Positions 9,078-31,983 of a stretch of DNA of 34,347 nucleotides are shown piece by piece. The notes under the pieces are model-generated. The model ran no database searches, was not told where the DNA came from, and saw only the letters and a list, made by a program, of their open reading frames with translations. Location of the stretch: assembly GCA_025363655.1 (NCBI GenBank), contig JANYDK010000031.1:1-34347 (forward strand). Direction: 5' to 3'. Position 1 is the first letter of the stretch, and each line of letters begins with the position of its first letter. Both the position numbers and the translations under genes were made by a program. The stretch is from Deltaproteobacteria bacterium (GTDB lineage Bacteria; Myxococcota_A; Polyangia; Polyangiales; JADJMO01).

Positions 9078-9737
9078 ATGACGAACCCCCTCTCCCAGCT
9101 CGCCCTTGCTGCCCTCAGCCTCTCCCTCGGCGCCTCTTCCCTCGCCTGCAGCAGCAGCTCCGGAAGCTCGACGACCGACGCTGCGTCGAGCGATGGCAAC
9201 GTCAGCGACACCGGCTCGTCCGGCGACACGACCGTCACGCCGCCGGGCGACAGCGGCCCGCGCTCCGACGCCGACAATCCGCCGCCGAGCGAGGCGGCCT
9301 GCGCCGATTACTGCGCGATGATGGACAAGAGCTGCACGGGAGCCAACGCGCAGTACGAAGACGTCGATTGCAACATTCTCTGCACGAAGCTCGCTGCGTG
9401 GCCGACCGGAGCTGCCGGCGCGACTTCGGGTAACACGCTCGCGTGTCGCGTCACCTACGCGAAAGCTGCTGCCTCCGATCCAGCGAAGAACTGCGGCCCA
9501 GCCGGCAAATTCGGCGCCGGCATCTGCGGCGGGCGCTGCGAAGGCTTCTGCCGCCTCTCGGCGCGCAACTGCACCGGCAAGAACCAGATCTACACCGACG
9601 ACGCGGCCTGCATGGCGACCTGCAACGGGTGGCCGACCGACAAGCAGGAGTGCAGCATCTACCACTTGGGCTTGGCGGGAGAAGATCCGGTGACGCACTG
9701 CCCGCACGGCAGCCCGACGAGCCACGCCTGCGGTTGA
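9078..9737 (+). CDS. Cys-rich secreted lipoprotein
   Basis: The 219-residue product starts at an ATG preceded by a strong ribosome-binding site (AGGGGAGGAG). Its signal peptide ends in SLACSSSSGS, a lipobox giving a lipid-modified Cys at about residue 24. A Ser/Thr/Asp/Gly/Pro linker to about residue 72 follows. The mature domain holds two similar Cys-rich units: CADYCAMMDKSCTGANAQY...CNILC and CEGFCRLSARNCTGKNQIY...CMATC. This is an internal duplication of a small disulphide-bonded domain, common among outer-surface lipoproteins of myxobacteria. No enzyme motif is present. It converges with the minus-strand gene ending at 9757. Confidence 0.85.
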   Translation: MTNPLSQLALAALSLSLGASSLACSSSSGSSTTDAASSDGNVSDTGSSGDTTVTPPGDSGPRSDADNPPPSEAACADYCAMMDKSCTGANAQYEDVDCNILCTKLAAWPTGAAGATSGNTLACRVTYAKAAASDPAKNCGPAGKFGAGICGGRCEGFCRLSARNCTGKNQIYTDDAACMATCNGWPTDKQECSIYHLGLAGEDPVTHCPHGSPTSHACG

Positions 9738-9756
9738 AGAACGAACGAGACGCGTC

Positions 9757-10299
9757 TCAGGCGACGACGGAGATCCACACCTCGTCGATGGAGCCGCTCC
9801 CGATCTGCACCCAGAGCGAGCCACCGCGGCATTTGCTGGTGGTGCCACCGTCGGCGGGGGGATCGTCCACGCAGTCGCCGAGGAGCTTCTTCACGTCCTC
9901 GAAGCCCATCGTGCGAAGGATGGTGGCCGTGCCCACGCGAACGTCGGAAGGGCTATATTTCAGGGACGTTTCGATGCGCGAGGCCTTGCCGGCGGCGTCG
10001 TAATAGACGTTGTACGGGATCGTCATTCCGCTGTACTTGGGGTGCACTTTCAGGAGCCCGAGCTTCTCGACGTCATCCTTCGGGGTGCCGAGCTTCAGCG
10101 GACCGAGCGACGTGTGCAGCACCAGCTCGACGGCCGAAGGATCGACCGCGCTCGGCTTCGGAGTCGCCGTCACGGTCGCTGTCACGTTGGCAGTGGGCCG
10201 TTGCTCTTTCGTCTCGTCTTTCGTCTCGTTTTTGCACGCGAATTGGCACGCGACGACGAGGAGACCCCCGATGGCGATCGACAGACGAGTCGTGCTCAT
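9757..10299 (-). CDS. Putative lipoprotein, unknown function
   Basis: The start chosen, ATG at 10299, gives 180 residues; ATG 10305 and GTG 10317 are in frame. The signal peptide MSTTRLSIAIGGLLVVACQ has a lipobox (VVAC), followed by a charged Lys/Glu/Thr-rich linker. The mature part (SLGPLKLGTPKDDVEKLGLL) looks like a small alpha/beta domain of the type where LGxxxxDV precedes a helix; the region around YNVYYDAAGKASRIETSL reads as a beta hairpin. No family is recognised. The gene begins about 31 bases after the stop of the biotin carboxylase gene on the same strand, so it may be the last gene of that operon. Confidence 0.7.
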   Translation of the reverse strand: MSTTRLSIAIGGLLVVACQFACKNETKDETKEQRPTANVTATVTATPKPSAVDPSAVELVLHTSLGPLKLGTPKDDVEKLGLLKVHPKYSGMTIPYNVYYDAAGKASRIETSLKYSPSDVRVGTATILRTMGFEDVKKLLGDCVDDPPADGGTTSKCRGGSLWVQIGSGSIDEVWISVVA

Positions 10300-10330
10300 T
10301 CCCATTCGACGCACCACCGACGCGAACGAT

Positions 10331-13288
10331 CTATCCGAGAATTCCGGCCAAAAGAGCCTTCGTGGCTTCGCGTCTGCGTGACGCGACGACCTTCGGATCT
10401 TCCTCGACGTGCTTTTCGTCGGGCGTGATCGCGAAGAGCGGCTGCCCTTTGCGCACCACCGTGCCCTCGCCCCCGGTGACCAAGATTTGATCGACGCGAC
10501 CGGAGAAGGGCGCCAGCACCTTGTTGAACATCTTCATCACTTCGAGGACGTAGAGCGGCTGGCCCTTCTGGAAGTGCATGCCGACGCTGACGAACGGGGG
10601 CTTGTCGGGGGCCTCTTGCGCGTAATACATGCCGCCGGAGACGGCGACGATCTCGCCCACCTTGGTCGCCGGCGGCGGCACCAGCACGCGTCGCATGCGC
10701 GCTTGCAGGGCAGGATCGTGAAGACGCTCGGGGATGGTGACGGTCAGATCTTCTTCGACCTTCAAGTCGTAGAAGCCGGTGCGCACGCCGATCAGCGGGA
10801 AGATGCCGAGCACCTCGAGCCCGCATTGGAAGCCGGCGTGGGCTGCGCGAACGTTGTTCCAGGTCGGCTCGTCGAAGCCGTCGGGAGCCTTCTTCTTCTC
10901 GTCACGCAGCAGCGCGTCGAGCTCGAGCCACGGCCGCTTCCCGAGCCGAGCTTCGAGCTTCCCGTAGAAGCCACGCGCGGTCTCGATGAGGTGGTGATCG
11001 TGATCCCAGATCACGTGCGCGGCCGGACGATCTTCGCGAAAGTCCATGTCGAGCAGGTGGTAGGTGTCGACGAGGACGTCGATTGGATTCTTCGTCCAGA
11101 CGACGCGCCCGCCTTCGACGACGAAGCTGTCTTTCTCGGCCGAAAGCCACGCCGAGAGAAAGTGCGGCTCGGCGAAGATGAGCTGGAAGGGGCGCTCGAG
11201 GAGGGTCTCTTTGCGTGCGATCGCCTCGCGCGTGCCGGCGAGCGCCGCCTTCAGCGCTTCGGGGCTCGCCGACGTGTTCGCCTTCAGCTTGGCCTCGTGG
11301 TGCTTCGCGACCTCGGCGAACGCGTGGTGCACGTCGACGTTGGCCGACTCTTCGGCGAGGAGCCCGACGGCGGCGAGGTAGGGAAGCACGAAGCGCGTCG
11401 TCGGCTTGGCGTAGACGTTGCGCTCGAGGAACCAATGCACGAGCCCGTAATGGAACTGCAGGTTGGTCGCGAGATCGACGCCGCGAATCTGCGTGCGTCG
11501 CAGCACCTCGGCGAGATGGAAGTACGACCCGTGACGATCTTCGCCGACGGTGACGAGGAGCGCGATGTTGCTGTCGTAGGCTCCTGCGAGGCGGTAGTGC
11601 ATGAAGAGACCGGTGTCCGGGTTCTTCATGCTGATGCCCTGATCGTCGCGAATTTCCCCTTCGATCGCGCTGGTCCAGCTGACGATCGACCCGCCCGCGT
11701 GCGGCGCGAGTGAACGATCGGTGGCGTTGAGACGCGCCTCGACGGCGGCCGGCTCGCGGAGCACGCGGTCGGGCTTCGGCAGTCGCTGACCGTGGCGCGC
11801 GATCAGCGCCATGCACTCGACGAGCGAGGTGACGTCGAACGAATCCGACGGTTCGGCCGGATTGCGGAAGCGGAGCGCGTAGCAGAGCTCCGAGACGCGG
11901 TGCTCGACCTGGATGCGCGTGTTGACTTCCATGAAGTAGTGACGATCGCCGTCGACGATGCACTCGAAGGTCGAGGCAGAGTCGAGCCCGACCGCGAGGC
12001 CGAAGCGCTCGGCCTCCTCTTCCATCTTCCGCAGCGTCTCGAGATCGCTCTCCAGCGCGCCTGCTTCCACGGTATTTCCAGCGTTTCGCGCGCGCAGCGC
12101 CGCGGTCATCAGCCCCTCGCGGGTGACCGACACCTCGAGCAGCTTCTGCTCGTGCATCTGCAGCGAGCAGTCGCGACCACCCATGGTGATGCACCAGTGG
12201 CCGTTGCCGACGAGCTGGATCTCGTTGTGCCGCGTCTGCTCGATGTTGAGCTCGAGGAGCACGTTCTTGTTGTCACCGACGCCGGTCGCCTTCACCTCGG
12301 CGAGCACCTCGCGCAGCTTCTCGGCGGCGACGCTCGCAGCCTCTTCCGCGCGTGCGACGCGCTCGCCTGCAGGAACGTCGGTCCGGATGCCGTCGAGGAG
12401 GCGCTGTCCTTTGCCGCCACCGCCGCCGATCGCCTTGATGCGCACACGTCGCCCCGGATTGTCGGACAAGAGGCGCGACGCCTCGCGCGTCACCTGCGCG
12501 CCGATCTCGTCGATGGAGACGAGGTCGATGCCGGCGGCGTACGACGCGTACAAGATCGACTCGGCGACCGCCGAGAGGTCACCCTCGTAGGAGACGCCCT
12601 CGAGACCATGCTCGTGCGCGATCGCGCGCAACGCCGGCAGGTCTTTCGCCTTGCCGAGGAGCGTGCGCGTGCTGACGTCGTTGACGCCGGGGGTGACGCT
12701 GACGTTCTGCGCGAGGGCAGTGCGCTTGGCCTCGTCCTTCTTGCCGGCGGCGCGCTGCACCCGTGAGCAGGGGCCCATGAAGATGAGGCCGGACTTCTCG
12801 ATTTCATGCACGAAATCGGCGTCCTCCGCCATGAATCCATAACCAGCGAATATGTAGTGGTAGCCGTTCTGTTTGGCGATCGCGATGATCTCGGCGACGC
12901 GCTCTTCGCGCTCTTCTTTGTTCGCACCGCTGTAGTCCTTCACGCGGTGCACGCGCGAAGGATGAATGGCGCGGAGCTCGGGGGCGAGCGCGAGCGTGTA
13001 GACGATCGAGTCTTTCTCGGAGAGGAGAATGCCGTAGCTGGCGAGGCCCATCTGCTCGAAGACGTCCATCGCCTCCTTGCGGATGGGACCGCGGCAGACG
13101 ATGAGCACCCGCATGTCCTCGCAGAGGTAGCTGCGCGCCCACGCCGAGCCCGAGCGTGCGAGCTTGCGATCGCGATACGTGCGCGGGTTGCGGAGGTAGT
13201 GATCGACGTGCGGCGAGACGCCGTTGGTCACCGCGCTCTGGGCGTTGGCGGCGCGGGGAAAACCAGAGGGAATCGACGGAGTGGCCAT
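10331..13288 (-). CDS. Biotin carboxylase / biotin carrier fusion, acyl-CoA carboxylase alpha-type
   Basis: The 985-residue protein carboxylates its own biotin with ATP and bicarbonate and hands the CO2 to a carboxyltransferase. The biotin carboxylase part (about 58-540) has the glycine-rich ATP loop KAIGGGGGKGQR, RHNEIQ, GRDCSLQMHEQK, MEVNTRIQVEH and VEARLN. These cover the known catalytic Lys, His, Glu, Asn, Arg and Gln positions. A long middle region of unclear fold follows (about 560-850). The carrier domain carries EVMKM, with the biotinyl Lys near 919. Ordinary acyl-CoA carboxylase alpha chains are about 660 residues, so this one is about 300 longer and diverged (GYGFMAED replaces GYGFLSEN). 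Its ATG shares one base with the TGA of the carboxyltransferase gene, indicating translational coupling. Confidence 0.9.
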   Translation of the reverse strand: MATPSIPSGFPRAANAQSAVTNGVSPHVDHYLRNPRTYRDRKLARSGSAWARSYLCEDMRVLIVCRGPIRKEAMDVFEQMGLASYGILLSEKDSIVYTLALAPELRAIHPSRVHRVKDYSGANKEEREERVAEIIAIAKQNGYHYIFAGYGFMAEDADFVHEIEKSGLIFMGPCSRVQRAAGKKDEAKRTALAQNVSVTPGVNDVSTRTLLGKAKDLPALRAIAHEHGLEGVSYEGDLSAVAESILYASYAAGIDLVSIDEIGAQVTREASRLLSDNPGRRVRIKAIGGGGGKGQRLLDGIRTDVPAGERVARAEEAASVAAEKLREVLAEVKATGVGDNKNVLLELNIEQTRHNEIQLVGNGHWCITMGGRDCSLQMHEQKLLEVSVTREGLMTAALRARNAGNTVEAGALESDLETLRKMEEEAERFGLAVGLDSASTFECIVDGDRHYFMEVNTRIQVEHRVSELCYALRFRNPAEPSDSFDVTSLVECMALIARHGQRLPKPDRVLREPAAVEARLNATDRSLAPHAGGSIVSWTSAIEGEIRDDQGISMKNPDTGLFMHYRLAGAYDSNIALLVTVGEDRHGSYFHLAEVLRRTQIRGVDLATNLQFHYGLVHWFLERNVYAKPTTRFVLPYLAAVGLLAEESANVDVHHAFAEVAKHHEAKLKANTSASPEALKAALAGTREAIARKETLLERPFQLIFAEPHFLSAWLSAEKDSFVVEGGRVVWTKNPIDVLVDTYHLLDMDFREDRPAAHVIWDHDHHLIETARGFYGKLEARLGKRPWLELDALLRDEKKKAPDGFDEPTWNNVRAAHAGFQCGLEVLGIFPLIGVRTGFYDLKVEEDLTVTIPERLHDPALQARMRRVLVPPPATKVGEIVAVSGGMYYAQEAPDKPPFVSVGMHFQKGQPLYVLEVMKMFNKVLAPFSGRVDQILVTGGEGTVVRKGQPLFAITPDEKHVEEDPKVVASRRREATKALLAGILG

Positions 13289-20875: not shown

Positions 20876-22369
20876 TCAGTAGCGAATGTGCGAGAGGTTC
20901 GTCGCGAGAATGGCGACGGGCGGTTGGCCGCCGACTTGGAAGGTGCGTCCGTCTTCGGGGCCACCTGGGTGAGCGACGGCGGCGATGCCGGCTTGGGCGA
21001 TGCGTTGGAAGTCGTCGGCGAGGACGATGGGTCCATCGCTCGCGAGGACCGCAGCGGCGCTCGCTTCCCCGGCTTCCCAGATCGCCTTCTCGATGGCGTG
21101 TCGACGAGAGACGGCGGCGTCGCCGACACCGACGGTGAAGGTCACGCCGCGTTCTTCACGCGCGAGCACGACCGCGTCGGAGCGCGTGAACTTGGCGATG
21201 GTCCAGGCGAAGGCGAGCAAGCGCTTCTGCTCGTGCGTCGGAACGTGACCTCCGGCGTCTCCCGCGGCGACTTCGTCTTTGCTCCGCGCGTCGCGCTGCT
21301 CGAGGATCGCAGCCCCCGGGACGATCGTGATCGAGAGATCGGCCAGGTCGGAGGCGAGGGTGCCGCCGGTGGCGAGGAGGGCGATGCCCTCGCGTTCGGC
21401 GAGTCGATCGATGGCGTCGGGATCGAACGAGGGGGCGACGAAGACCTGCATCGGCACGTTTTCCAGGCGCGCGAGCAGTTGCGCCGACGCCGGGACGTTG
21501 ATGGCGACGACTGGCTCGGAGAGCCCGGGTGCGAGCTGTCGGAGCACGGTGGCGAGCGCGAGCTCGATGTCCTGCGCCGAGGCGACGGCGACCGGACGCT
21601 GCCGCGCGATCACCACCGCCGTCGGATGCGGCATCTCGGCGAGGAGCTCGGTGGCGAGGCATACGTCGCGCGCACGGCTCGCCGTCACCTTCCCCGAGGG
21701 GCTGAAATTCATCGTCGTCGGCAAGGTGCCGTCGACCGGATGAGCGCTGCGAAAGAGCCACGCCTCTTGTTGCTTGTTCGACCCTGATCGCAGCTTGCTC
21801 AATCGGTGATAGTCGCCGAGGACGATCTCGGGGAGGTCTTGGCGAATGCCTTCGTCGTCGTACATGCTGAGCTCGCGCATCAGCGGGCCCTCGTAGAGCG
21901 CCAACGTCGAGAGCGCGTGGCGCGCCTGTTTGCGACAGAAGGGCTCGTCGAAATCGCCTTTGTATTGGTACTCGCTGACCACCGTCGGGTAGTCGGCCGG
22001 GTCCATGATCACGCAGGTGTCGCGGTAGCGGAGAATGGCGGCCATCGCCACCGTCGGCCCGACGCGATCGATGCCGTCGAGGATCAAGTCGAAGCCGAGG
22101 TCGGCAGGTGCGCGACGAAAGGGCGGCGGCAGATTGACGACGACGATTTGCACTGCCTGTCCGGCGATGGTGCGAAGCGCGGGGTCGGTCCTGTCGTGAT
22201 GGGCGAAGAGCGTGGCCGTCTCGGTCACCGGCACGTTGCGCGCGCGGAGGAACGCGGCGGTGTGCGACGGCGCGAGGATCTCGACCTTGACCTGCTCGAC
22301 GAGGAAGCGCGCGAGCTCGTCGATACCGCGGGTGTCGACGACGGAAATGAAGGCATGCGTGAGCTGCAT
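20876..22369 (-). CDS. PurH (AICAR transformylase/IMP cyclohydrolase) homologue with lost catalytic motifs
   Basis: The 497-residue protein follows PurH from end to end. It has an MGS-like N-terminus (AFISVVDTRGIDELARFL), VVVNLPPPF, ILDGIDRVGPTVAMAA, LRSGSNKQQEAWLF where PurH has LRYGENPHQ, a central transformylase region, and a C-terminal FAWTIAKFTRSDAVVLARE. The motifs that make PurH work are changed. The IMP cyclohydrolase segment normally reading GRVKTLHPKxHGG is absent (residues about 54-70 are LFAHHDRTDPALRTIAGQA). The transformylase Lys-His in IVKHANPCG is replaced in VIARQRPVAVA (253-263). NPHQ has become NKQQ. It is intact, with no frameshift, so it is probably a paralogue with a new role rather than the housekeeping enzyme. 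Confidence 0.8.
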   Translation of the reverse strand: MQLTHAFISVVDTRGIDELARFLVEQVKVEILAPSHTAAFLRARNVPVTETATLFAHHDRTDPALRTIAGQAVQIVVVNLPPPFRRAPADLGFDLILDGIDRVGPTVAMAAILRYRDTCVIMDPADYPTVVSEYQYKGDFDEPFCRKQARHALSTLALYEGPLMRELSMYDDEGIRQDLPEIVLGDYHRLSKLRSGSNKQQEAWLFRSAHPVDGTLPTTMNFSPSGKVTASRARDVCLATELLAEMPHPTAVVIARQRPVAVASAQDIELALATVLRQLAPGLSEPVVAINVPASAQLLARLENVPMQVFVAPSFDPDAIDRLAEREGIALLATGGTLASDLADLSITIVPGAAILEQRDARSKDEVAAGDAGGHVPTHEQKRLLAFAWTIAKFTRSDAVVLAREERGVTFTVGVGDAAVSRRHAIEKAIWEAGEASAAAVLASDGPIVLADDFQRIAQAGIAAVAHPGGPEDGRTFQVGGQPPVAILATNLSHIRY

Positions 22370-22498: not shown

Positions 22499-23164
22499 AT
22501 GTCGAGTGTCCACACCGCCGCGAAGGGCGACTGCGTCTACAGCATCGCCGACCTCTACAAGATTCGCGATTGGAAGAAGATCTACGACGCGCCCGACAAC
22601 GCCGACATGAAGAAGGCGCGGCCCGATCCGAACGTCCTCATGGAGGGCGACGAAGTGGCGATCCCCGACGTCGAGCCGGCGACGCGGAAGGTCACCGCGT
22701 CGACCGAAGAGAAGCACAAATACCAGGTCAAATTGCCGAAGTGCCTGCTTCGCGTGGCGGTGCACGACGAGGAAGACAAGCCCATCTCGGGGAAGAAATT
22801 CCTCCTCCTCGTCGGCGACAAACGCTTCGAGGGCACGACCGATGGCGACGGCATCGTCGAGCAGCGCATTCCCTTTCAAGCATCCACTGCCAAGCTCTAC
22901 GTCTTCTTCACCGACAAGAAGGACGACGGCGAGCACCTCTATTGGGATGTCGACATCGGCGGCCTCGAGCCGTCCGACACGCCACGAGGAATTCAGGAGC
23001 GGCTGAACAACCTCGGCTTCGTCTGCGGCGAGGTCGACGGCAAGTGGCACGACGGCATGGACGTCTCCCTCCGCACCTTCCAGAAATCAGCCAAAATCGA
23101 CCCCAACGGCGAACCCGACGACGCAACCACCAAGAAGCTCAAAGAAGTACACGGGAAGATCTGA
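22499..23164 (+). CDS. LysM-like / beta-sandwich / peptidoglycan-binding protein, T6SS-neighbour type
   Basis: The 221-residue protein has three parts. Residues 4-56 are LysM-like (HTAAKGDCVYSIADLYKI, ending DPNVLMEGDEVAIPD). Residues about 78-150 form a transthyretin/carboxypeptidase-regulatory-like beta domain (LRVAVHDEEDKPISGKKFLL, then TTDGDGIVEQRIP). Residues about 160-218 are a peptidoglycan-binding domain (GIQERLNNLGFVCGEVDGKW, then LRTFQKSAKID). From memory this architecture recurs beside VgrG, PAAR and effector genes in myxobacteria and Burkholderiales. No signal peptide is present, which fits a protein exported by a contractile injection system. Its role there is unproven: it could be a carrier or adaptor that loads or anchors effectors. 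It converges on the phospholipase gene, and its stop codon lies inside the hairpin at 23151-23173. Confidence 0.8.
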   Translation: MSSVHTAAKGDCVYSIADLYKIRDWKKIYDAPDNADMKKARPDPNVLMEGDEVAIPDVEPATRKVTASTEEKHKYQVKLPKCLLRVAVHDEEDKPISGKKFLLLVGDKRFEGTTDGDGIVEQRIPFQASTAKLYVFFTDKKDDGEHLYWDVDIGGLEPSDTPRGIQERLNNLGFVCGEVDGKWHDGMDVSLRTFQKSAKIDPNGEPDDATTKKLKEVHGKI

Positions 23165-25785: not shown

Positions 25786-28344
25786 CTACCAGCTCATCAC
25801 GAACGACTTGTGAATTTCACGCTCGAGGACGTATTTGCCGTCGCCGAAGAGATCGACCTTGGCCGTGCCCCGAACGTGGAGGACGCCCTCGGCGCGTTGG
25901 TGCGCGTCGGCGTCTTTCATCTTGGTGAACGCCTTGACGACGAGCGGCTCGTTCATCGTCGCCTCTTCGTCGCTCTGCAGTTCGTCGGGCTTGAAGCTCC
26001 ACTGATCGGGTGGCTTGCCGTCGTTGTGATCGATGGTGAGATCGATCTTCCAGCGCGAGTGGGCGTTGAGCGGGTTGCTCTTCTCCGGCGTGCCGGTGCG
26101 CAAGATCAGCGACTTGGCGATGATCACCGAGTGCTCGTTCTCGAGCTCGAGCTTGGGGTCGTAGTCGTAGATGAGCTCGTTGAGCACGCGGTGCTGCGCC
26201 TTGATGTCGCCGGCGAGCGTCGGGAGCTTGCCCTTGAAGCCGTAGAAGTCGCCGTCGTCGAGCTTGTCGAGCCCGCGATGGAGCATGTTGCCGGGATCGC
26301 CCCACTTGCAGTGACGGAGAAATACGCTTGCCGGCGTGAGGTTGGTGACCGCGAAGGAGCCGCCGGCTTCGAGGAGGATTCCAGTGAGGAAGACGGGAAT
26401 GCCCCAGCCGACCTCGGAGGTGAGCGCGCCCGTTGCCTCGAGGACCTCGGCCCCGGAGACGACGACGGTGAGCGCGGCGCCGAAGGTGCGGATGCCGTGA
26501 CCGACTTTTTCGCCGGTGGTCTTCGCCTCGAGCATCTCTTTGCCGAAGAGGATGAAGTCGATGACCGAAGAGACGATGGAGATGAAGGGCGCGATCTTCA
26601 CGACCTTGGTCGCGCCTGCGTATTTGAAGGAGACCTTCGCCTCTTCCAGCGTCTTGCTCACCTTCGAGGCGGCGTCGTAGAAGTCGCCGATCGAGCCGAC
26701 GAGGCCGAGCGCGTTCCAACCGTCGGGCTCTTCGGCGAGCTTCATCGCCGACATCGCAAGGTTGTACGTCTCGATGCCGAGCATCAGGTGGTTGAGGCCG
26801 ACCTTGGTCGCCTTGCCCGCTTTCGTCTTCGGCGAGTCGATCCAGAGCGAGCCCGGGTTTTTCCGGCCCTTCTTCATCGCGCGCCACTCGCGCTTGAACT
26901 CGGCGGGGCTGAGCGTCTCGATGTCGACGTCGTGCGTGGCCTTGAGCCACGACTTCATGTTCTTGGTCGCGTCGGAACGAAACTTCTTCGTCCACATCGG
27001 CGCCCAGTGCTTGAAGAACTTGTGCCAGGTCTTGTCGGAGTCGGCGGCGGTCGCCAGCTTGCGACCGGCCTCGAAGGCCATCTCGGCGCCGGCGGTGGAG
27101 ACGGGGAATTTCTTCGCCACCAGGTCGTCGAGAACGGACTCCATCCAGACGACGCCGGCATGCGACTCGGCCATGCGCGATTGCACCGCGTAGGCGACGT
27201 CGTTGGCCGGGCCGATGGTGTCGGCGTTGCCGAGGTAATCGCGAATCGCCTCGGTAAATGGGTTGAACCAAGCGGTCGGCGCGGCTTGGGCCTTCGCCAT
27301 CGCGTACTGCTTGCCGCTGCCGTCGCGGTAGATGATGCCGCCCTCGTGCTGGTGCCCGTACGACACCCAGCGCATGAGGTTCTCGCTGTAGTTCTCGACC
27401 GCGAGACGAAGCTTGAAGACGTCGGCCTCGGCGTCGCGCAGATAGTTCGGCAGCTTGGCAGCGACGATCTCGTCGAGCTTGAACGCCCGCGCATACGCCT
27501 CGACCCGCTTGCCGAGGACGTACTCGTCGTCCTTCGACATCTGCACTTGCTTGTCGAGCCACTTGTCGAGCCACTTGTGGTACGGCTCGACGCGCAAAAG
27601 CGCTTCTTTCATCGGGTCGTAGAGGTGCAAGACGAAGCCGAGGCCGTCGGGCTTCGACCCCTTGAAAAGATCGTAAAAGCACTTCGCCTTCGACGCGTCG
27701 CCGTCGGTAAAGCCGTCGGTGAAGAGCGCGTCGCCGATGCGCTGCGCACGCGCCGCGGTCTTCGTGTCCTTCGGCAGCTCTTGCAGGCGGGCCCAAGGAA
27801 TCTGGAAGGGCGCGAGGATCGCGAAGTAGTAGCGCACCGCAGGCTTGCCGTTCGTCACGCGGACGATGTCGAGCCAGAGGCTCTTGTACTTCTTCTTCCC
27901 CGGCTTGCGGACGTCCTTGCCCGAGTTGCCCTCGAGGTCGACGATCGAGAGCTCGCCCTTCTCGTAGTAGAGCTCGTGATCGAGCATGAGGCCGGCGCCT
28001 TCGGCCGAGTCGGCGGAGAAGACGTAGACGTACTTGGCGTCGATCGGCCCCGAGCGTTTGCGCGAGAAGGAGCGGTAAAACGGGCCGTATCCGTATTCGC
28101 GGAGCATGCCGTACATGCCCGGCACGTCGGAGGTGGCGTCGTCGATTTTCTCGCCCGCTTCGTCGATGAACTGCGGGTAGCGATGCCAACCGGTGAGCTG
28201 CCCGTCCATCGAGACGTCGAGCGCGACTTTGGGACTGTTCGGCGAGCCGACCAGGCGTCGCATGGGGAGGTCGTAGATCGCGTCGATCTCCTTGAAGACG
28301 ACTTCGAACTGCGTGACCGCCGACTCGTTGCCTTGCAGGGCCAT
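25786..28344 (-). CDS. VasX/BTH_I2691-like putative pore-forming effector
   Basis: The 852-residue protein has no signal peptide. The N-terminal half contains YVYVFSADSAEGAGL near residue 105 and LGFVLHLYDPMKEALLRVEP (235-254), like the DP-containing block near the middle of VasX-type toxins. A helical region follows. Three hydrophobic segments are at about 581-601 (VVKIAPFISIVSSVIDFILF), 616-640 (HGIRTFGAALTVVVSGAEVL) and 645-670 (VGWGIPVFLTGILLEAGGSF). After them comes TPASVFLRHCKWGDPG, similar to the closing WLxxCxFG region of the family. VasX-like proteins form pores in the target inner membrane. A tandem repeat at 27550-27573 gives HKWLDKWLDKQ. The assignment is by pattern, not by search. 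The ATG is preceded by GAGGTAAGG. Confidence 0.55.
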   Translation of the reverse strand: MALQGNESAVTQFEVVFKEIDAIYDLPMRRLVGSPNSPKVALDVSMDGQLTGWHRYPQFIDEAGEKIDDATSDVPGMYGMLREYGYGPFYRSFSRKRSGPIDAKYVYVFSADSAEGAGLMLDHELYYEKGELSIVDLEGNSGKDVRKPGKKKYKSLWLDIVRVTNGKPAVRYYFAILAPFQIPWARLQELPKDTKTAARAQRIGDALFTDGFTDGDASKAKCFYDLFKGSKPDGLGFVLHLYDPMKEALLRVEPYHKWLDKWLDKQVQMSKDDEYVLGKRVEAYARAFKLDEIVAAKLPNYLRDAEADVFKLRLAVENYSENLMRWVSYGHQHEGGIIYRDGSGKQYAMAKAQAAPTAWFNPFTEAIRDYLGNADTIGPANDVAYAVQSRMAESHAGVVWMESVLDDLVAKKFPVSTAGAEMAFEAGRKLATAADSDKTWHKFFKHWAPMWTKKFRSDATKNMKSWLKATHDVDIETLSPAEFKREWRAMKKGRKNPGSLWIDSPKTKAGKATKVGLNHLMLGIETYNLAMSAMKLAEEPDGWNALGLVGSIGDFYDAASKVSKTLEEAKVSFKYAGATKVVKIAPFISIVSSVIDFILFGKEMLEAKTTGEKVGHGIRTFGAALTVVVSGAEVLEATGALTSEVGWGIPVFLTGILLEAGGSFAVTNLTPASVFLRHCKWGDPGNMLHRGLDKLDDGDFYGFKGKLPTLAGDIKAQHRVLNELIYDYDPKLELENEHSVIIAKSLILRTGTPEKSNPLNAHSRWKIDLTIDHNDGKPPDQWSFKPDELQSDEEATMNEPLVVKAFTKMKDADAHQRAEGVLHVRGTAKVDLFGDGKYVLEREIHKSFVMSW

Positions 28345-28399: not shown

Positions 28400-29227
28400 T
28401 CAGGTCCAGCTGACGTCGCCCGGAGCGGCGACCTCGAACTCGTGCAGGGCGTGCCCTTCGAGGAGCTTTCCCGCGTCGTGCTCCTGCGTGATGATCGCCT
28501 CGTAGGGAGCGTCGTCGAAGATCACGCGACGGAAATCTTCGTCGTGCACCTGGGTCAGTCGATAGTCGACGTCGGGCACCAGGTTGCGGAAGACGATCTG
28601 TTTCCAGCCTTTTTTCTCGCTGATCGCGTCCTTGGCGGTGATCGTGCGCGAGTAGCTGCCGTCCTTCGACTCGAGGATGAACTTGGGGAAGCCGTCGTCG
28701 AGACCGTCGGCGTCTTTGAGCGCGAAGGAGACGGTCATGATGCCCTTCTTTTCGTCGTCCTCGATGTTCGACTCGCCGTCGCCGACGCCTTCGTAGTCGT
28801 AGACCTCGCGGATCTCGTGATCGAACTCGGGCGCTTCGTCGAAGTCGAAGTACGGGCGGCCGACCGGCGTCGGCACGACGTGTGGCTTCATCGGATCGCT
28901 GCTGGTGCGCGCGATGGTCGGGTCTTGGTTCTCGATTTCGCAGACGTAGAGGCCAGCGTCGACCATGTGATCGACGCGGGCGACGCCGTTGCGATCGGTC
29001 TTCAGCGGATCACCCACCGCCGCGCCCTTCCCGCCGTCGGCGGCGGCCTCGAAGAACTTCACCTCGACGTCGTAGATGGGATGCCGATGGAAGGTGACCT
29101 TGACCGCGAGGTGCCCCAACTGACGGGCGACGAGCATGCCCGAGAGCTTTTTTTCGTGGGGATCGAGCACCCGCGCGAGCGCTGCGCGCGGGAACGGCGA
29201 TTCTCTGTCTTCTTTCGAGAGCGGCAT
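28400..29227 (-). CDS. Unknown beta-rich protein, first gene of the effector operon
   Basis: The 275-residue protein has no signal peptide. A beta-sandwich-like segment (about 37-102) contains VKVTFHRHPIYDVEVKFFEA and TDRNGVARVDHMVDAGLYVC, the same transthyretin/carboxypeptidase-regulatory pattern found in the LysM-like protein. A second beta-rich half follows (about 165-270: MTVSFALKDADGLDDGFPKF, FRNLVPDVDYRLTQVHDEDF). No catalytic motif or membrane segment is seen. The start is an ATG preceded by GGAGGGAC. It leads the minus-strand set with the VasX-like and phospholipase genes, so it may be an effector adaptor, a chaperone, or an effector in its own right. No family could be named. Confidence 0.7.
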   Translation of the reverse strand: MPLSKEDRESPFPRAALARVLDPHEKKLSGMLVARQLGHLAVKVTFHRHPIYDVEVKFFEAAADGGKGAAVGDPLKTDRNGVARVDHMVDAGLYVCEIENQDPTIARTSSDPMKPHVVPTPVGRPYFDFDEAPEFDHEIREVYDYEGVGDGESNIEDDEKKGIMTVSFALKDADGLDDGFPKFILESKDGSYSRTITAKDAISEKKGWKQIVFRNLVPDVDYRLTQVHDEDFRRVIFDDAPYEAIITQEHDAGKLLEGHALHEFEVAAPGDVSWT

Positions 29228-31221: not shown

Positions 31222-31983
31222 CTACTCGTGGGTCCGTGGCGCCACGACGTCGCCTCCAGCGCAGGCGGTGACATAACGCCTCACCGTCTCGGCGAGGCCG
31301 AGGTAGAGCGCGTCGGCGATGAGCGCGTGACCGATCGAGACCTCGACGATCTGCGGGATTTCTCGAGCGATCGTCGGAAGGTTGTGCAAGTCGAGATCGT
31401 GTCCGGCGTTGACCCCGAGCCCGCATGCGGCCGCCGCCTCCGCTGCGCTCTTCAATCGTCCGAGCTCCATTGCGCGCTTCTCGGTCGGAAAGGCCGCGGC
31501 GTAGGGCTCGGTGTAGAGCTCGACGCGGTCGGCGCCGACGTCCTTGGCTGCGCGCATCGAGCCCGTGTCGGCGTCCATGAAGATCGACGTACGAATGCCG
31601 CGAGCTTTCATCCGCGAGGTGACCTTGGCGACGCGCGCGTTTTCCCGCGGCAAGTCCCAGCCGTGGTCACTGGTGATCTCCCCGGGGCGCACCGGAACGA
31701 GCGTGAATTGATCGACCCCCAGCTCTTCGGCGAGGGTGAGGAGCTCTTCGCGATCGTCGCCTTCGAGGTTCATCTCGACGCCGCGCGAAAGGCAGAGGGC
31801 GCGCAGCTCGCGGACGTCGTCTCGCCTCGCGTGCCGAGAATCTTCGCGCCAATGGAGCGTGAGCCCCGAGGCGCCGGCGTCGAGACAAGCGATGCCGGCG
31901 AGCACCGGCGACGGATTCTTCGCGCCACGCGAGTTGCGGAGGAGCGCGACCTTGTTGAGGTTGACCGAGAGATGGAGCGCCAC
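31222..31983 (-). CDS. pdxJ: Pyridoxine 5'-phosphate synthase
   Basis: The 253-residue TIM-barrel enzyme condenses 1-deoxyxylulose-5-phosphate with 3-amino-2-oxopropyl phosphate to pyridoxine phosphate, the last ring-forming step of the DXP-dependent vitamin B6 route. Family motifs are [14 protein letters not shown], THxRED-like [55 protein letters not shown] and [15 protein letters not shown]. In E. coli the first motif is VNIDHVATLRNARG; here Asn10-Lys11 replace Asp-His. To my knowledge a similar NK pair occurs in Bacteroidetes PdxJ. The start is GTG at 31983. The gene lies 48 bases upstream of the esterase gene and 77 bases downstream of the GH13 gene. Confidence 0.95.

What the first reader, a model, noticed from the sequence alone, without database searches (positions are those of the whole stretch)
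20876..22369. Full-length PurH homologue with every signature catalytic motif replaced
The gene is intact and aligns in order with PurH, but the cyclohydrolase GRVKTLHPK segment is missing, NPHQ is NKQQ, and the transformylase Lys-His is lost (VIARQRPVAVA). A housekeeping PurH could not work like this. An uninterrupted 497-codon frame with normal codon use implies selection for another function, for example ligand sensing of AICAR/ZMP or a structural role.
Basis: partly seen in the sequence, partly recalled or inferred. Interest (0 to 1): 0.62.

Follow-up and report, generated by a model that had tools for sequence, protein, structure and literature searches.

The report
Dead purine enzyme beside secreted phospholipase
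A gene descended from the essential purine enzyme PurH has lost nearly all its catalytic and substrate-binding residues but is kept intact, and every known copy sits in a small gene set with a toxin-like phospholipase D of the kind injected by type VI secretion systems, so it has probably become that toxin's partner, either an antidote or a chaperone.

Summary
Observation confirmed. Window 20876-22369 (-) encodes an intact 497-aa PurH homologue lacking RVKTLHP, with NPHQ as NKQQ and Lys-His as Ala-Arg; it keeps 14 of 47 catalytic or substrate residues. The genome has a separate canonical purH. It is not a one-off: a second dead copy lies elsewhere in the genome, and a third on a contig binned in another genome (probably mis-binned from a relative). 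The three share 29 derived residues that 55 canonical PurHs lack: one old subfamily. The one pair close enough to test is under purifying selection (dN/dS 0.31).

All three lie in one four-gene module with unrelated flanks: a LysM/PG-binding protein, a small unnamed protein, a two-HKD phospholipase D related to the T6SS effector PldA/Tle5, and the dead PurH. At two loci it starts 7-21 nt after the phospholipase gene. The genome has a T6SS; relatives of the LysM protein sit beside vgrG genes.

Best reading: a PurH-fold pseudoenzyme recruited as cytosolic partner (antidote or holdase/adaptor) of a T6SS phospholipase D effector. Lost catalytic residues, conservation and module are shown; partnership is inferred. 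ZMP/AICAR sensing is disfavoured: most phosphate-binding residues are gone. No published PurH pseudoenzyme or T6SS link was found.

The parts
20876..22369 (-). PurH-fold pseudoenzyme, 497 aa (dead in both AICARFT and IMP cyclohydrolase sites)
   Evidence: sister copies P0002 (G000:C31) and P0004 (G122:C141)
22499..23164 (+). LysM-like N-terminus + PG_binding_1 domain protein, 221 aa; candidate effector-loading accessory
   Evidence: PF01471 E 8e-8; homologues in all three modules 45-48% identical; family members beside vgrG genes in the same genome
23211..25766 (-). two-HKD phospholipase D, 851 aa, candidate T6SS effector (Tle5/PldA-like)
   Evidence: PLDc E 1e-12, PLDc_2 E 3e-13; HQKFVVLD at 291 and HSKLMMVD at 687; orthologues adjacent to the dead PurH in both other modules; the sister P0007 matches PldA chain 7v53 E 4e-22
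25786..28344 (-). 852-aa protein with one strong hydrophobic segment; weak relative of T6SS effector family BTH_I2691; only in the window copy of the module
   Evidence: NF041559 E 1.3e-5, 23.9 bits, far below its cut-off 150; hydropathy 2.06 at residue 581
28400..29227 (-). small unnamed protein (275 aa; shared N-terminal ~170 aa), fourth member of the module
   Evidence: no Pfam match; homologues only in the three modules among 317 genomes of the class

Best explanation
The gene encodes a PurH-fold pseudoenzyme that no longer makes purines. It belongs to a four-gene module (LysM/PG-binding protein, small protein, two-HKD phospholipase D, dead PurH) that looks like a type VI secretion effector module: the phospholipase is the likely toxin and the LysM protein its likely loading factor. 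The dead PurH most likely acts as the cognate cytosolic partner of the phospholipase in the producing cell, binding it and keeping it inactive or folded until export. I put an antidote (immunity) role somewhat ahead of a pure chaperone/adaptor role. Shown: loss of active-site residues, single derived subfamily, purifying selection on the C31/C141 pair, one-to-one linkage with the phospholipase, presence of a T6SS and of LysM relatives beside vgrG in the genome. Inferred: that the phospholipase is T6SS-exported, that the two proteins bind, and the direction of the effect.
For: Canonical purH elsewhere in the genome. Dead copies keep 14, 10 and 10 of 47 catalytic/ligand residues. 29 residues are identical in the three dead copies and absent (<=2%) from 55 canonical PurHs; control triples reach at most 2-3. 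Tree puts the three in one clade, SH-aLRT 99. dN/dS 0.31 (bootstrap 0.25-0.38) for the C31/C141 pair, against 0.24-0.26 for canonical purH within the family. All-against-all comparison of the three loci: the same four genes and nothing else. The dead PurH starts 7 and 21 nt after the phospholipase stop at two loci. The close phospholipase family in the order is confined to the genomes that carry the dead PurH, apart from one distant homologue; the small protein occurs only in these three loci among 317 genomes. T6SS sheath and baseplate genes present. LysM relatives lie beside VgrG genes. Stand-alone LysM proteins let a T6SS toxin bind VgrG, with an antidote gene in the same locus (PMC10673891). 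Phospholipase sister matches PldA, 7v53 (PMC9550806).
Against: No binding, toxicity or secretion data. Known immunity proteins of T6SS lipases are periplasmic or face the periplasm (PMC6560169), but the dead PurHs lack a signal peptide or N-terminal hydrophobic stretch. No vgrG gene was noted beside the module in the stretches read. In the window the LysM gene lies between phospholipase and dead PurH on the other strand, so there they are not one operon. Only three modules are known, from two lineages.
Confidence: 0.5

Rival explanations
1. The dead PurH is an adaptor, chaperone or co-effector that loads the phospholipase onto the secretion spike, with no antidote role.
For: Cytosolic by sequence (no signal peptide), unlike all known T6SS lipase antidotes. 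Size and 1:1 linkage with the phospholipase. Dedicated adaptors for T6SS lipases exist (Tla3 for Tle3, PMC6560169).
Against: The module already has a LysM protein, a type shown to do this job elsewhere. By general knowledge adaptors usually lie upstream of the effector and antidotes downstream; here the gene lies downstream.
Confidence: 0.25
2. The protein is an enzyme or ligand sensor with a new activity, for example nucleotide binding, that modifies or regulates the phospholipase or responds to purine status.
For: Both PurH domains are retained over full length; a new motif (A/S)RxRPV replaces VKHTNPCG at the old transformylase site, with ARP/V residues identical in all three, so that site may bind something else.
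Against: Nearly all residues that hold AICAR, FAICAR or the phosphate are replaced in all three copies. No metabolic genes in the module.
Confidence: 0.13
3. A recently decaying purH duplicate without function, or an assembly or frameshift artefact.
For: Single window copy is missing a motif and is very divergent (branch length over 7 in a saturated model).
Against: Three intact copies, shared derived residues, dN/dS 0.31 for the testable pair, conserved module.
Confidence: 0.03
4. The dead PurH is an independent gene that happens to travel with the phospholipase module (for example a third cargo) and does not act on the phospholipase.
For: In the window the two genes are separated by an opposite-strand gene.
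Against: Tight coupling with 7-21 nt gaps at two loci; flanks differ but the four genes stay together.
Confidence: 0.09

Closest known systems
PurH / ATIC (bifunctional AICAR transformylase / IMP cyclohydrolase)
   Same: Full-length two-domain homology (PF02142 + PF01808), best solved matches 3zzm, 4ehi and human ATIC 1pkx
   Different: Catalytic and substrate residues lost in both sites; PurH equivalog cut-offs not met; not in a purine locus; genome has a normal purH
PldA (Tle5a) and its antidote PA3488 (Tli5) of Pseudomonas aeruginosa
   Same: A two-HKD, eukaryotic-like phospholipase D linked to a T6SS, with a partner gene beside it
   Different: PA3488 is unrelated to PurH and has a signal for the periplasm; the dead PurH has none. 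Phospholipase here is shorter (851-870 against 1099 aa) and closest by score to plant PLD alpha
T6SS LysM effector-loading loci (Ketobacter, Burkholderia)
   Same: LysM or PG-binding accessory gene near a toxin gene and an antidote gene (PMC10673891)
   Different: No vgrG noted beside this module; toxin is a phospholipase D; putative antidote is a PurH fold
ForH (PDB 6nko)
   Same: Solved protein that matches the N-terminal part of the model (Foldseek E 2e-7)
   Different: About 190 residues only, from the formycin pathway (own knowledge); nothing of that pathway was seen around the window gene

Membership tests
PurH, functional enzyme | IMP cyclohydrolase residues (Lys66, Tyr104, Asp125, Lys137, phosphate loops) | tested here: not met
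   Lys66, Tyr104, Lys137 and most phosphate-loop residues lost in all three; Asp125 kept in the window copy, Glu in the others
PurH, functional enzyme | AICAR transformylase residues (Lys266, His267, Asn431, Arg588) | tested here: not met
   A/A/S, R, D and S in the three copies
PurH, functional enzyme | Score above the curated PurH equivalog cut-offs | tested here: not met
   190, 227, 233 bits against 402; canonical copy 694
PurH superfamily fold | MGS-like domain followed by AICARFT/IMPCHase domain | tested here: met
   PF02142 and PF01808 above gathering scores; the AF2 model matches PurH structures first by Foldseek although the model is mediocre, mean pLDDT 60
T6SS phospholipase D effector (Tle5) module | Phospholipase with two intact HKD motifs | tested here: met
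   HxKxxxxD at 291 and 687, and in both sisters
T6SS phospholipase D effector (Tle5) module | Genome encodes a T6SS | tested here: met
   VipB E 1e-129, VipA, TssF, ClpV-like ATPase on C132; several VgrG
T6SS phospholipase D effector (Tle5) module | vgrG, PAAR or known adaptor gene in the same locus | tested here: not met
   None noted in the stretches read around the three modules; only a LysM/PG-binding protein. Not every flanking ORF was scanned against Pfam
T6SS phospholipase D effector (Tle5) module | Export by the T6SS | not testable with these tools
   needs a secretion assay
Tle immunity protein | Periplasmic location | tested here: not met
   no N-terminal hydrophobic segment in any of the three
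Tle immunity protein | Neutralises the cognate phospholipase | not testable with these tools
   needs co-expression and binding assays

The most novel reading that the evidence does not exclude
A housekeeping purine enzyme fold, dead in both active sites, has become the dedicated cytosolic antidote of a secreted phospholipase D toxin: a new fold for toxin immunity, acting in the cytosol rather than the periplasm.
Probability: 0.3. Interest if true: 0.78.

Novelty: new variant of a known kind. Interest (0 to 1): 0.6.

Why it matters
PurH is one of the most conserved enzymes of purine synthesis, and I found no report in the held library of a PurH pseudoenzyme or of a PurH homologue tied to a secretion-system toxin. 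If the partnership holds, it shows how a core metabolic fold is recruited as a toxin partner, adds a fold to the antidote or chaperone repertoire, and warns that annotation by homology would call these genes purH. It also gives a compact, testable system: two neighbouring genes with a clear prediction.

Tried and rejected
AICAR/ZMP sensing: rejected as the lead because the ligand residues are mostly gone. Decay or artefact: rejected. Spread across families: first suggested by the G122 copy, then withdrawn, because contig G122:C141 has the tetranucleotide signature of the window's genome and not of other G122 contigs, and a flanking gene matches all four same-family genomes at 40-52% but nothing in G122's family above 32%. 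My first rate control (canonical purH of G000 against G122) was therefore invalid and was replaced. Catalytic residues supplied from shifted positions: a structure prediction was tried but was too poor for that test (mean pLDDT 60); the sequence alignment gives no sign of it. A periplasmic lipoprotein as the real antidote: flanking lipoprotein genes are not shared between the loci. Same-family genomes G001-G004 lack dead copies and the phospholipase. Viral contigs hold no relative; plasmid hits were canonical-looking PurHs at <60% identity. Of the literature searches, two (active-site residues of ATIC, ForH) found nothing.

Full report
What is there. The reading frame 20876-22369 on the minus strand is intact, 497 codons, with GC3 0.85 like its neighbours. 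It is a full-length PurH homologue (PF01808 E 2e-33, PF02142 E 1e-7; best solved relative 3zzm) but lies far below the PurH equivalog cut-offs.

How dead is it. I aligned it with 55 canonical PurHs and two sister genes. Of 161 columns that are at least 95% conserved in canonical PurH, the window copy keeps 61. Of 47 catalytic and substrate residues (human ATIC numbering from my own knowledge, placed by motif), the three dead copies keep 14, 10 and 10. Lost in all three are Lys66 (deleted in the window, Glu in the others), Tyr104, Lys137, Tyr208, Asn239, Lys266, His267, Asn431 and Arg588, and most of the phosphate loops of the cyclohydrolase site. In the two sister copies active-site columns are lost more than other invariant columns (Fisher p about 0.001); in the window copy the trend is not significant (p 0.2). 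A predicted structure was too poor (mean pLDDT 60) for a structure-based test of shifted residues, though PurH structures are its best Foldseek matches.

The rest of the genome. The window's genome holds a canonical purH with all motifs (C143), and a second dead copy (C31, 32-34% identical to the window copy). A third lies on G122:C141, 64-65% identical to the C31 copy. Dead copies were not seen in the four other genomes of the family or elsewhere in the order; the phylum sample used a cut-off that could miss divergent ones.

One subfamily. The three share 29 residues absent from canonical PurH; control triples reach at most 2-3. The tree joins them with SH-aLRT 99, with the caution that the branches are very long. 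The C31/C141 pair has dN/dS 0.31 (0.25-0.38), near canonical purH within the family, 0.24-0.26. For the window copy the comparison is saturated.

The module. All-against-all comparison of the three loci finds exactly four shared genes: a LysM/PG-binding protein, a small unnamed protein, a phospholipase D of 851-870 aa, and the dead PurH. Flanks differ. At the two sister loci the dead PurH follows the phospholipase by 7 and 21 nt on the same strand. In the window the LysM gene sits between them on the opposite strand, and an 852-aa weak relative of a T6SS effector family is inserted. The small protein occurs only in these three loci in 317 genomes; the close phospholipase family occurs in the order only in the same places, plus one distant homologue in G154 whose next gene is not PurH-like.

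Link to type VI secretion. The phospholipase has two intact HKD motifs and its sister matches eukaryotic PLDs and PldA (7v53). The genome encodes T6SS sheath and baseplate proteins and several VgrGs, and relatives of the LysM protein sit beside VgrG genes. In other bacteria stand-alone LysM proteins are needed for a toxin to bind VgrG (PMC10673891). No vgrG was noted in the module itself, so T6SS export is an inference.

What it most likely does. The one-to-one pairing and downstream position suggest a cognate partner of the phospholipase. Known antidotes of T6SS lipases are periplasmic (PMC6560169), and the dead PurHs have no signal peptide, so a cytosolic inhibitor or holdase is more likely than a classical periplasmic antidote. 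I rate partnership of some kind (antidote or chaperone) at about 0.75 in all, without being able to separate the two firmly.

Caveat on the third copy. G122:C141 is probably mis-binned from a relative of the window's genome. It still counts as a second lineage, but not as evidence of spread between families. The window contig itself fits the signature of its genome.

Noticed in passing
G122:C141 (L073): This contig appears mis-binned: its signature and a flanking gene fit the window's family rather than G122.
   Followed up: yes
window 31222-31983 (-): PdxJ gene, the only one found in the genome, is 60% identical to that of G014 but only about 41% to those of the same family; possible transfer.
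   Followed up: no
window 25786-28344 (-): 852-aa protein with a strong hydrophobic segment, weak match to T6SS effector family BTH_I2691; no obvious antidote gene beside it.
   Followed up: partly
G034 and G038: Two genomes of one family each carry two PF01808 matches covering only about positions 67-311 and no full-length PurH match; possibly the monofunctional AICAR transformylase type.
   Followed up: no
G154:C504 (L089, about 9196-11229 -): A related but distant phospholipase D gene lies after a PG-binding-type gene, followed by an RDD-like membrane protein and no PurH-like gene.
   Followed up: partly
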